NCBI GenBank assembly: GCA_025054715.1
Contig: JANWYH010000001.1
Span: 370,001-434,000, forward strand
DNA from: Pyrinomonadaceae bacterium
GTDB lineage: Bacteria > Acidobacteriota > Blastocatellia > Pyrinomonadales > Pyrinomonadaceae
Length of the DNA stretch: 64,000 nucleotides
Reading direction: 5' to 3'
Below are positions 618 to 4,395 of the stretch, one piece after another. Made by a program: the position numbers and the translations under genes. The notes under the pieces were generated by a model. It did no database searches and had not been told where the DNA came from. It worked only from the letters and a program-made list of their open reading frames with translations. Position 1 is the stretch's first letter. Every line of letters begins with the position of its first letter.

Positions 618-1016
618 TTACTCCGTTTTTTGAACTAACTCTAACAAGACTCCGTTAGTAGAAGAAGGATGAACAAACGCTATTAAGCAATTTTCTGCAC
701 CGATGCGGGGAACTTCGTCAATTAGTCTAGCACCGCTTGATTTAAGCTTTTCAAGCGCATCATAGATGTTTTCAACCTCAATGGCTATGTGATGAATTCC
801 ACCGCCGCGCTTTTCAAGAAACTTGCTAATAGGCGAATCTTCAGCCGTAGGCTCTAAAAGCTCAATCCTAGTTTCGCCTATCGGTAGCATTGCTACGCGA
901 ACCTTCTGTTCTTCAACAACCTCTGTGTGAACATTTTCAAGACCGAGGGAGTCTTCCCAAAATTTTAACGCTTCTTCGATGCTTTTTGTTGCAATGCCAA
1001 GATGATTGATTTTCAT
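618..1016 (-). CDS. mce: Methylmalonyl-CoA epimerase
   Basis: A 132-residue vicinal-oxygen-chelate (glyoxalase-fold) protein of normal epimerase length. It interconverts (R)- and (S)-methylmalonyl-CoA in propionyl-CoA/branched-chain catabolism. Two betaalpha-beta modules are visible. Candidate metal ligands are His5 in MKINHLGIA, His75/76 in GGGIHHIAIEV and Glu127 in the final GVLLELVQ strand. The ATG overlaps the stop of meaB as ATGA, so the two are translationally coupled. The pairing with MeaB favours methylmalonyl-CoA epimerase over other glyoxalase relatives. The mutase itself is not in the window. Confidence 0.9.
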   Translation of the reverse strand: MKINHLGIATKSIEEALKFWEDSLGLENVHTEVVEEQKVRVAMLPIGETRIELLEPTAEDSPISKFLEKRGGGIHHIAIEVENIYDALEKLKSSGARLIDEVPRIGAENCLIAFVHPSSTNGVLLELVQKTE

Positions 1017-1945
1017 CTTAAAATTTTCTCCACTGCTGAGTATGGATCTATTCTTTTTTGTGCAACTTCGAGTGCTAATTGATCTAATTTTTCTTTTGCT
1101 CCGTTTTTGTTAAGCAACTCTTGTAAAAGCTTTTCTCTTAAAAGCTCTAATAGTCGCCACTTCGCTACAGCACTTCGTCTTTGTAAGTTTTCATTTTTCT
1201 TTTGAAATTCGTAATATTTACTAATGGCTTCGGCTAGTTCGTCTATTCCTTTGCTTTCAACAGCAATTGTTTTGATAATTGGCGGGTTCCATCCATCCTG
1301 TCTGCTAGTAAGTTCTAGAAGCATTTTTAATTCACGTTCGGTTTTTAAGACGCCATCTCGATCGGCTTTATTTATGACAAACAAATCTCCTATTTCCATT
1401 ATCCCGGCTTTTATTGCCTGAACATCATCGCCCATGCCGGGGACTAGAACAACTACAACAACATCAGCTGCCTTCACAATCTCAACTTCATCCTGACCAA
1501 CGCCGACAGTTTCAACTATTACTTTTTGAAAACCTGCAGCGTCTAGAATGTTAACCGCATCAACTGTTGCTCTTGCAAGCCCGCCGAGATTACCGCGTGT
1601 TGCCATCGAACGAATAAATATGTTTTTGTCAGTTCCAAGAGCGGACATTCTGATTCTATCGCCTAAGATTGCTCCGCCAGAAAAAGGGCTTGAAGGATCA
1701 ACAGCAATGATGCCAATCTTCTCGCCTTTTTCCTTGTAAAGCATTGCTAATTTATCAACTAAAGACGATTTGCCAGCACCAGGTGAGCCGGTTATGCCAA
1801 TGACCATTGCATTTCCTGAGCGTTCAAAAACTGCTCTCATTATTTCAGAAGATTCTGCTTCGGCGTTTTCTACTTTTGATATAGCACGTGCTATGGCTCT
1901 GGCATCTGCTGAAAAAACTCCTTTGACTATCTCAGCCGCATTCAT
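1013..1945 (-). CDS. meaB: Methylmalonyl-CoA mutase-associated GTPase MeaB (ArgK family)
   Basis: A 310-residue G3E-family P-loop GTPase. Walker A is GSPGAGKS at residues 53-60, followed by a PSSPFSGGAILGDRIRM segment typical of MeaB/ArgK, a VETVGVGQDEVEI switch region and the NKAD guanine-specificity motif. MeaB protects and reloads the adenosylcobalamin-dependent methylmalonyl-CoA mutase. Its 4-bp overlap with mce shows a methylmalonyl-CoA module. Together with the B12 uptake locus at 32.3-37.8 kb, this indicates a cobalamin-dependent propionate pathway. Confidence 0.93.
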   Translation of the reverse strand: MNAAEIVKGVFSADARAIARAISKVENAEAESSEIMRAVFERSGNAMVIGITGSPGAGKSSLVDKLAMLYKEKGEKIGIIAVDPSSPFSGGAILGDRIRMSALGTDKNIFIRSMATRGNLGGLARATVDAVNILDAAGFQKVIVETVGVGQDEVEIVKAADVVVVVLVPGMGDDVQAIKAGIMEIGDLFVINKADRDGVLKTERELKMLLELTSRQDGWNPPIIKTIAVESKGIDELAEAISKYYEFQKKNENLQRRSAVAKWRLLELLREKLLQELLNKNGAKEKLDQLALEVAQKRIDPYSAVEKILR

Positions 1946-2023: not shown

Positions 2024-2833
2024 CTAACCGTAGAAAAATTCTCCACAAAAAACAATCTCTGCTGTTCCTATTAGTAGCATTTGATTATTTTCTTTCCAAA
2101 AGGCTTGTGTAGTCCCACCAACTGCTTTTACGAGCACTTCACCTCGCTTTTTTATACGATTTAGATATGCAGTAGCTGCGGCTATGGAGCATGTTCCTGA
2201 AGAATTCGTTTCGCCGGCGCCTCGCTCCCAGATTCTTATCTCTATTTGTTTTTCATTCAAGGGCTTTACGAAAACAACATTTGTTCTTGATGGGAAGTTT
2301 TCATGACATTCAATTTCTGCTCCTATTTGTCGCCAGTTGAGTGAATTAAAATCTTCAACAAAAATTACGCAAACGGGATTTCCAACATTTACAAAATCAA
2401 TGTTTAAGGTGGTGTCAAGAACAGATATGTTCAAGTTTTCGATTTTTGACAAGATGCCGAGTTCGGTTTCAAACCAGAAAACTTTGCCTTCTTTTTTTAG
2501 AAGTTTGTATGTTTTTATTCCGCTCAGGGTTTCTAGTTTAAGCTCTTTTCTTTTCCAGAGGTTCTTAAAATATAGGTAGGCGGCGGCACAACGAGTTCCG
2601 TTTCCTGAAAAGGCAGCTTGGCTTCCATCTGGATTAAATATCAAGCATCTGTAATCGGCACCTTCTGTAGTCGGTTCTAAAACTGCTATTCCATCGCTAC
2701 CAACTCCAAAATGCCTGTTACAGACCGTTATTGCAAAGTCATTTATTTCTTTAGGCAAGTCCTTTCTTAGAAACACTAAATAATCATTGCCGCATCCTTG
2801 AAATTTGCAAAGCTTGATCCGTTGCATTTTCAA
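2024..2833 (-). CDS. dapF: Diaminopimelate epimerase-like protein, both catalytic Cys replaced by Ser
   Basis: A 269-residue DapF-fold protein, the family's usual length. The two pseudo-symmetric halves are present with FNPDGSQAAFSGNGTRC at residues 66-82 and ERGAGETNSSGTCS at 203-216. In characterised DapF the catalytic pair is the Cys before GNG and the Cys in the A-C-G-T/S-G motif. Here these are Ser76 (codon TCA at 2608-2606) and Ser212 (codon TCA at 2200-2198). The start is probably TTG 2833, six bases after GGAAG and overlapping the dacB stop; ATG 2827 is possible. If active it would convert LL- to meso-diaminopimelate for lysine and peptidoglycan, and its link to a PBP4-type peptidase supports a wall role. 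The serine pair leaves the true reaction open. Confidence 0.8.
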   Translation of the reverse strand: MKMQRIKLCKFQGCGNDYLVFLRKDLPKEINDFAITVCNRHFGVGSDGIAVLEPTTEGADYRCLIFNPDGSQAAFSGNGTRCAAAYLYFKNLWKRKELKLETLSGIKTYKLLKKEGKVFWFETELGILSKIENLNISVLDTTLNIDFVNVGNPVCVIFVEDFNSLNWRQIGAEIECHENFPSRTNVVFVKPLNEKQIEIRIWERGAGETNSSGTCSIAAATAYLNRIKKRGEVLVKAVGGTTQAFWKENNQMLLIGTAEIVFCGEFFYG

Positions 2834-4395
2834 TTTAGTCTTCCATTGAAGTTTGCTAAAAGAAGAACTATCTCATCGATTACTGAGACTCTCAAGTTTT
2901 GATCGGGGAAATTATTCACGATGATTGAAAAGGCAAGCCGTTCGCCCGCAGCAGTTGTAACGTATCCGCTCAGCGATGAAACTTGGGATATAGTGCCGGT
3001 TTTGCCACGAACGTTGTTTTCGGCTTTTGTTCCGCGAAATCTATTCTTTAAGGTTCCATCAACGCCGCCTATTGTAAGGCTTTCTGTCCAAGCCTGACTA
3101 AAACGGCTCTTATGCATAAAAGCGTAGAGGCTAACTACAGCATTCGGAGTAACTAGGTTATGTCTTGAAAGTCCAGAACCGTCATACATCAGAACACTTC
3201 CCTGGGGTATGCCAATTTCTTGCAAGAATTTATCAATAACGGCAATTCCCTTGTCGGAACTTGTCCACTCTGGTTTTGCACTTTCGGTTGGGACGTTTTC
3301 GCCTAATGTTCTAAGCAAAATTTCTGTGTAAAGGTTTTGACTGGGTTTCATCGTCTTTTGTGCGATGAGAAACAAGGGTGGAGATTCAAGGCGAGTAAGC
3401 TCTACTAGGTCTTTGGGTAAGGGTTGCTGTTTGCGAGTTTCTGCATCAGCAGTTTCCGTTTGACCTTCGATAATGACACCTTTTCTTTCAAGAATAGAAC
3501 GAAGAATCGAAGTAAATGTCAATGCCGGATCCGGTATCGAGACAAATGCTTCGTAACCTTTATCGTCTTTAGGAATAGATCCCGTGACCTGCACTATATT
3601 TGTTCCCAGCTTTCTTGTTATGTTTATTTTTCTTGGAACTCCAGCTTTAGACGTCTCGACTTTGTTAATTAAAAACAAACCACTTTCTACGGGTAAAACC
3701 TGAATTTTAGCTTGCTCACCTTCATTCATAGAAGGTATTATGAAAAGCTTTGCTACGTTATCGTTTATTGTGAGAGCAGAAACTTGTGCTCCGTAATACC
3801 ATTGCAAATCTTCCCATTCCCATGTGTACGGAATTTTGGTCCCGGTGAAGAAGCTTTCGTCTCCTATCAGCTTGCCTTTAATTTTTTTAATTCCAAGGCT
3901 AACTATTTTATCAGCAAGCTTTTCCATGGCGTTGATCTCGTCATCACTGCTTATTCCGAAGGATATTGTAGGATCACCTCTTCCGTAAATGATCAGGTCA
4001 GAATGTAGTATTCCGTCCTTATCAGGTTTTGTTGAAGAGTAAACACTCGTTACAAAGGTAAAGTTTGGTGTGAGTTTTTCGATAGCTGCGGCGACCGTAA
4101 AGTTTTTCATGTTTGAGGCTGGCATGAAGAGTTTTTCGCTGTCTTCTTCAAAAATCACTTTTCCTGTGTCTAGCGAAAGAATCTTTATGCCGAGCCTTGA
4201 GCGTCTAAGGTAGTCACGAGTAAGAATCTCGCGGATTTTAGATTGTAGCTCGGTGAGATTTTGTCGAGAGTCGTTTTCAAACGATTTCTGAGGGGTTGGT
4301 GAGGTTATGACTCTAAAACGAGAAGCATCTTGCTGAGCTTTTATTGGTAAAACTAAAAGCAGTGTAAGAAGTAGAAGCGCCTTAATTCTTTTCAT
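2830..4395 (-). CDS. dacB: D-alanyl-D-alanine carboxypeptidase/endopeptidase, PBP4 (S13) family
   Basis: A 521-residue secreted penicillin-binding protein with an N-terminal signal peptide (hydrophobic residues 6-20). The three S13 active-site motifs are visible: SxxK as S94-N-M-K97 in MPASNMKN, SxN-like SGLSRHN in the C-terminal half, and KTG in RGKTGTISQVS. The long insertion between the first two motifs is characteristic of class C low-molecular-mass PBPs. It trims D-Ala from, or cuts cross-links in, peptidoglycan in the periplasm. Its stop overlaps the start of the dapF-like gene, suggesting an operon around wall metabolism. Confidence 0.92.
   Translation of the reverse strand: MKRIKALLLLTLLLVLPIKAQQDASRFRVITSPTPQKSFENDSRQNLTELQSKIREILTRDYLRRSRLGIKILSLDTGKVIFEEDSEKLFMPASNMKNFTVAAAIEKLTPNFTFVTSVYSSTKPDKDGILHSDLIIYGRGDPTISFGISSDDEINAMEKLADKIVSLGIKKIKGKLIGDESFFTGTKIPYTWEWEDLQWYYGAQVSALTINDNVAKLFIIPSMNEGEQAKIQVLPVESGLFLINKVETSKAGVPRKINITRKLGTNIVQVTGSIPKDDKGYEAFVSIPDPALTFTSILRSILERKGVIIEGQTETADAETRKQQPLPKDLVELTRLESPPLFLIAQKTMKPSQNLYTEILLRTLGENVPTESAKPEWTSSDKGIAVIDKFLQEIGIPQGSVLMYDGSGLSRHNLVTPNAVVSLYAFMHKSRFSQAWTESLTIGGVDGTLKNRFRGTKAENNVRGKTGTISQVSSLSGYVTTAAGERLAFSIIVNNFPDQNLRVSVIDEIVLLLANFNGRLN

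What the first reader, a model, noticed from the sequence alone, without database searches (positions are those of the whole stretch)
2024..2833. DapF homologue with both catalytic cysteines changed to serine
Established DapF enzymes use two cysteines as acid/base pair. Here both are serine (Ser76 in FSGNGTRC, codon 2608-2606; Ser212 in NSSGTCS, codon 2200-2198), while the surrounding fold motifs are intact. Coordinated double change is not random decay. It may be a distinct subfamily with different chemistry (in the related proline racemase family, Ser/Thr variants become dehydratases), a slow epimerase, or a binding protein. A new cysteine (Cys215) lies three residues after Ser212.
Basis: partly seen in the sequence, partly recalled or inferred. 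Interest (0 to 1): 0.65.

Follow-up and report, generated by a model that had tools for sequence, protein, structure and literature searches.

The report
DAP epimerase with serines for cysteines
This is a phylum-wide, strictly conserved version of the cell-wall and lysine enzyme diaminopimelate epimerase in which both catalytic cysteines are serines; because it is the only such enzyme in a genome that needs its product, serine probably does chemistry thought to require cysteine.

Summary
Window 2024-2833 (-) encodes a DapF (TIGR00652, E 3e-60) with Ser at both catalytic positions (Ser76, Ser212). It is neither decay nor a one-genome oddity: every DapF typed in the window's class, and 129 of 147 typed genomes across its phylum (Acidobacteriota, by named relatives), are Ser/Ser only; 16 are Cys/Cys, one has both, one is a Cys/Ser hybrid. 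Among 65 non-redundant Ser-type proteins (mean identity 39%) both serines are invariant and no cysteine is. Cys215 is lineage-specific. One origin fits the tree. The AlphaFold2 model (pLDDT 96.6) is a DapF fold; DAP-binding residues are invariant. It is the only DapF in a 99%-complete genome that has DapD, a DapE-like deacylase, DapB, LysA and a DAP-type MurE but no detectable DAP dehydrogenase; glutamate racemase there keeps both cysteines. Best reading: a working LL-/meso-DAP epimerase using a Ser/Ser acid-base pair (inferred; activity unmeasured). Cys-to-Ser mutants of a relative are strongly impaired, yet natural Ser/Cys epimerases exist in the proline racemase superfamily. No description of a Ser/Ser DapF was found in the open-access library.

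The parts
2024..2833 (-). dapF-like gene, Ser/Ser type, 269 aa from TTG 2833 (or 267 aa from ATG 2827)
   Evidence: TIGR00652 203.8 bits over cut-off 114.65; PF01678 154.6 bits
2606..2608 (-). Ser76 (TCA) at the first catalytic Cys position, N-cap of helix 77-89
2198..2200 (-). Ser212 (TCA) at the second catalytic Cys position, N-cap of helix 213-226
2189..2191 (-). Cys215, lineage-specific, not conserved in the Ser type
   Evidence: 45 of 175 sequences
2222..2227 (-). Glu203-Arg204, DAP-binding pair of DapF, invariant
2830..4395 (-). PBP4-type D-Ala-D-Ala carboxypeptidase gene directly upstream of dapF, its stop overlapping the TTG start; likely same transcript (inference)
   Evidence: TIGR00666 265.3 bits; PBP4 homologue beside dapF in 22 class loci

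Best explanation
It is the organism's diaminopimelate epimerase: it turns LL-DAP into meso-DAP for peptidoglycan and lysine, using Ser76 and Ser212 in place of the usual cysteine thiolate/thiol pair. The likely mechanism is the DapF one: the two domains close on DAP, the N-termini of two helices hold the alpha-carboxylate, one serine (as alkoxide) takes the alpha-proton and the other gives one from the opposite face. Shown: sequence, predicted fold, strict conservation, invariant DAP-binding residues, sole DapF in the genome, a genome-encoded need for meso-DAP, near-exclusive exchange with Cys-type DapF within the phylum. Inferred: that it epimerises DAP at a useful rate and that the serines are the bases.
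For: Only DapF in a 99%-complete genome. dapD, DapE-like and dapB genes side by side, LysA over cut-off, MurE with DNPR, no DAP dehydrogenase. DapF fold, TM 0.89-0.90 to liganded DapFs. Residues whose loss abolishes CgDapF activity are invariant or conservatively kept. Ser76 and Ser212 invariant in 65 diverse proteins. 129 genomes Ser-only, 16 Cys-only, 1 both. MurI keeps both Cys in all 25 readable loci, own included, so the change is specific to DapF. L268 Ser/Ser dapF is followed by a lysA-like gene. Natural Ser/Cys 4-hydroxyproline epimerase on the same general fold (PMC4113996).
Against: Ser has a much higher pKa and desolvates less easily than Cys (PMC8142540). Cys-to-Ser mutants of HisR are greatly impaired, and Ser mutants are used to stall such enzymes for crystallography. 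No new conserved acid or base that would activate the serines was seen. The probable Chloracidobacterium genomes keep the gene though no DapD was detected there. No activity has been measured.
Confidence: 0.74

Rival explanations
1. A DAP epimerase in which the serines are not the direct bases: an ordered water, a metal, PLP or another cofactor, or a neighbouring residue carries the proton, and the serines only position it.
For: Chemistry disfavours serine as a carbon-acid base. A PLP-dependent side activity has been reported for chlamydial DapF (PMC5885031).
Against: No new conserved Lys, His, Asp, Glu, Tyr or Cys distinguishes the Ser type; no cysteine is invariant. A pure positioning role does not explain why Ser alone is allowed at both sites.
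Confidence: 0.13
2. The protein has left epimerase chemistry (dehydratase or elimination enzyme, other amino acid, or DAP-binding role), and an unknown enzyme makes meso-DAP.
For: In the proline racemase superfamily a Ser/Thr pair gives a dehydratase; Ser mutants of glutamate racemase still do eliminations.
Against: DAP-binding residues are unchanged; no DAP dehydrogenase or other DapF in the genome; near-exclusive replacement by Cys-type DapF within one phylum. An unknown epimerase would be needed throughout the phylum.
Confidence: 0.1
3. An inactive, decaying copy, or a sequencing or alignment artefact.
For: None found.
Against: The same residues occur in well over a hundred separate genomes and are invariant; the alignment in the flanking motifs is unambiguous.
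Confidence: 0.01

Closest known systems
DapF, cofactor-independent diaminopimelate epimerase (EC 5.1.1.7; e.g. PDB 9MRO, 3EJX, 1GQZ, 5M47)
   Same: Fold, length, all flanking motifs, DAP-binding residues, genomic need for the product
   Different: Both catalytic cysteines are serine; several second-shell positions differ
C73S and C217S mutants of H. influenzae DapF (PDB 2Q9H, 2Q9J)
   Same: Ser at one of the same two positions
   Different: Laboratory single mutants of a Cys enzyme; the present form has both changes and is natural
Ser/Cys 4-hydroxyproline 2-epimerases of the proline racemase superfamily (B9JQV3, PMC4113996)
   Same: Natural two-base epimerase of the related fold with Ser as one catalytic residue
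   Different: Only one face is Ser; different substrate; only about 14% identity to that superfamily in the fold search
Aspartate/glutamate racemase EcL-DER with one Cys replaced by Thr (cited in PMC8142540)
   Same: Cofactor-independent racemase with a hydroxyl residue in place of one Cys
   Different: One replacement only, and reported to act irreversibly in one direction
Cofactor-independent histidine racemase HisR (F. nucleatum)
   Same: DapF-like fold; Cys-to-Ser mutants studied
   Different: Cys/Cys enzyme for histidine; 14-15% identity to the window protein

Membership tests
DapF (diaminopimelate epimerase) | Score above the curated equivalog cut-off of TIGR00652 | tested here: met
   203.8 bits against 114.65
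DapF (diaminopimelate epimerase) | DapF two-domain fold with the catalytic residues at the N-termini of two helices | tested here: met
   Model pLDDT 96.6, helices 77-89 and 213-226; best PDB matches are all DapF
DapF (diaminopimelate epimerase) | DAP-binding residues (CgDapF N15, N74, N85, N159, N194, E212, R213, T223) | tested here: met
   N16, N67, N78, N152, N185, E203, R204, T214, invariant or nearly so, T/S at 214
DapF (diaminopimelate epimerase) | Two catalytic cysteines as acid/base pair | tested here: not met
   Ser76 and Ser212; Ser in every member of the clade
DapF (diaminopimelate epimerase) | LL-DAP/meso-DAP epimerase activity | not testable with these tools
   Only indirect: sole DapF in a genome needing meso-DAP
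Proline racemase superfamily Ser/Thr dehydratases | Membership in that superfamily by sequence | tested here: not met
   No proline racemase family among Pfam or NCBIfam hits; 13-16% identity in the fold search against 25-31% for DapF
Bifunctional DapF/glutamate racemase (NF038284) | Score above the curated cut-off of 350 | tested here: not met
   87.6 bits; the own genome has a MurI

The most novel reading that the evidence does not exclude
A bacterial phylum makes meso-DAP with a cofactor-independent epimerase whose two acid/base groups are both serine hydroxyls: a Ser/Ser two-base proton-transfer enzyme, showing that the cysteine pair is not required to remove an amino-acid alpha-proton.
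Probability: 0.6. Interest if true: 0.78.

Novelty: new variant of a known kind. Interest (0 to 1): 0.62.

Why it matters
Cofactor-independent racemases are the textbook case for cysteine as the base that removes a very weakly acidic alpha-proton. A natural Ser/Ser enzyme, fixed over most of a large phylum and placed at an essential step, would make the question 'why cysteine?' directly testable by swapping residues in both directions. It would also mean that DapF inhibitors that react with the thiol may miss these bacteria, and that annotation by catalytic cysteine misses them. A Ser/Ser enzyme could not form the inactivating disulfide described for CgDapF, a possible advantage (inference).

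Tried and rejected
Second DapF in the genome: none. A single-protein scan of genome contigs confirmed nothing; with an alignment it worked. Cys215 as a rescuing thiol: not conserved. Cys82 as a substitute: Ile in the second Ser subclade and also present in Cys-type enzymes. Two independent origins of Ser/Ser: the quick tree first suggested more than one, but holding all Ser forms in one clade raised the likelihood by 39.6, p-AU 0.865, so convergence is not claimed and shared second-shell changes are not independent evidence. A role of Ser-DapF in D-glutamate supply: unlikely, since the MurI-less f4 and f5 genomes have a strong D-amino-acid aminotransferase homologue. A DapL route in the own genome: only weak aminotransferase hits. 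Plasmid searches gave only distant DapFs, not typed. No paper describing a Ser/Ser DapF was found, in an open-access library only.

Full report
OBSERVATION. The minus-strand ORF at 2024-2833 encodes a 269-residue protein that scores as DapF against TIGR00652 (203.8 bits, cut-off 114.65) and matches PF01678 in both halves. Aligned with solved DapFs it has Ser where each has its catalytic cysteine: SGNG against CGNG, and SSGTC against ACGTG. The start may be ATG 2827, because the close relative L004 starts at the aligned Met; the serines would then be 74 and 210.

HOW WIDE IT IS. In the window's class 149 of 162 genomes have a match, and all 100 class loci typed are Ser/Ser, over nine families. 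In an even draw of 396 genomes of the phylum, 376 carry a DapF match. Of 147 genomes typed, 129 have only Ser-type, 16 only Cys-type, one has both (G499), and one (G167) has a Cys/Ser hybrid as its only match; by family, 33 are Ser-only and 10 Cys-only. Typing rests on the best-scoring loci fetched, so rare second copies could be missed. Named relatives show the phylum to be Acidobacteriota, Aminicenantes included; matches from Bacillota, Chloroflexota, Actinomycetota, Nitrospirota and others in the same scan are Cys/Cys. Two Ser/Ser examples lie outside: a contig labelled Bacteroidetes (L268), whose next gene is lysA-like, and an IMG/VR contig (L270) with a recombinase-like gene.

CONSERVATION. 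In 65 Ser-type proteins below 60% identity to each other (mean 39%), Ser76 and Ser212 are two of only 23 invariant columns; the window protein's other serines are conserved at 0.74 or less, and no cysteine is invariant. Serine at site 76 is encoded by TCN in most sequences and by AGY in a minority. A quick tree built without the two catalytic columns puts 39 Ser rows in one clade (SH-aLRT 96) among Cys enzymes; holding all Ser rows together gives a better likelihood, so one origin fits. Apart from the catalytic pair, the positions that differ most are 85 (K/R in Cys-type, Ala in the main Ser clade, K/R kept in the second subclade), 201 (V/T to F/I), 11 (Met lost) and 121 (V to F). These may be adaptations or mere ancestry.

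STRUCTURE AND SUBSTRATE. The AlphaFold2 model is very confident (pLDDT 96.6, pTM 0.92). Ser76 and Ser212 sit directly before helices 77-89 and 213-226, the place of the catalytic cysteines. Its best PDB matches are DapFs, led by liganded ones (9mro, TM 0.89; 3ejx, TM 0.90). The residues that bind DAP, and whose alanine mutants are almost inactive in CgDapF (PMC5296763), are all present and essentially invariant. So substrate recognition looks unchanged while the bases have changed.

PHYSIOLOGY. This is the only DapF in a genome estimated 99% complete. The genome has dapD, a DapE/ArgE-like deacylase gene and dapB side by side, lysA, and murE with the DNPR motif of meso-DAP-adding enzymes (the meaning of the motif is established knowledge). 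The deacylase is below its subfamily cut-off, so its DapE role rests on its place in the operon. No DAP dehydrogenase was detected, and DapL models give only weak aminotransferase hits here. LL-DAP is therefore probably made and meso-DAP needed, with no other known enzyme between them. MurI, which uses the same two-cysteine chemistry, keeps both cysteines in all 25 readable loci, own included. The gene follows a PBP4-type carboxypeptidase gene; a PBP4 homologue lies beside dapF in 22 class loci.

MECHANISM. The simplest account is a normal DapF cycle with serine as base and acid. [quoted passage not shown] For it stands precedent: a natural 4-hydroxyproline epimerase works with Ser on one face and Cys on the other (PMC4113996). 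I put 0.74 on DAP epimerase with serines as bases, 0.13 on DAP epimerase by another proton carrier, and 0.10 on another reaction or substrate.

VERDICT. By sequence and fold it belongs with DapF, but it fails the family's catalytic-cysteine criterion, so it is filed as a new variant, not an ordinary member. The open-access literature searched here did not describe it; subscription papers and database notes were not searched.

Noticed in passing
L134 (G167, family f15): A DapF of the otherwise Cys/Cys 'ERGVE' clade with Cys at the first site and Ser at the second; the only match in a genome estimated 100% complete: a natural half-way form.
   Followed up: partly
L268, 2986-5158: Ser/Ser dapF of the 'SGNGLRIF' subclade on a contig labelled Bacteroidetes, directly followed by a lysA-like gene (280.5 bits, just under cut-off); suggests transfer between phyla or misbinning.
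   Followed up: partly
L270, 180-3768: IMG/VR viral contig with a serine-recombinase-like gene and a Ser/Ser dapF: a mobile-element copy of the Ser type.
   Followed up: partly
How they make DAP is unclear.
   Followed up: partly
G015, G018, G019, G022, G023 (families f4, f5): Glutamate racemase MurI is missing, and exactly these genomes carry a strong D-amino-acid aminotransferase homologue (271-284 bits): a swap of D-glutamate routes.
   Followed up: yes
L077 and L078 (G046): One genome with two full-length, diverged Ser/Ser dapF genes; could be a duplication or a mixed bin.
   Followed up: no
window 618-1945 (-): Methylmalonyl-CoA epimerase gene overlapping a MeaB-type GTPase gene, a propionate-metabolism pair downstream of dapF.
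   Followed up: no
L183 6071-8720 (own genome, contig C19): Adjacent genes that look like kynureninase and kynurenine 3-monooxygenase, by eye only.
   Followed up: no
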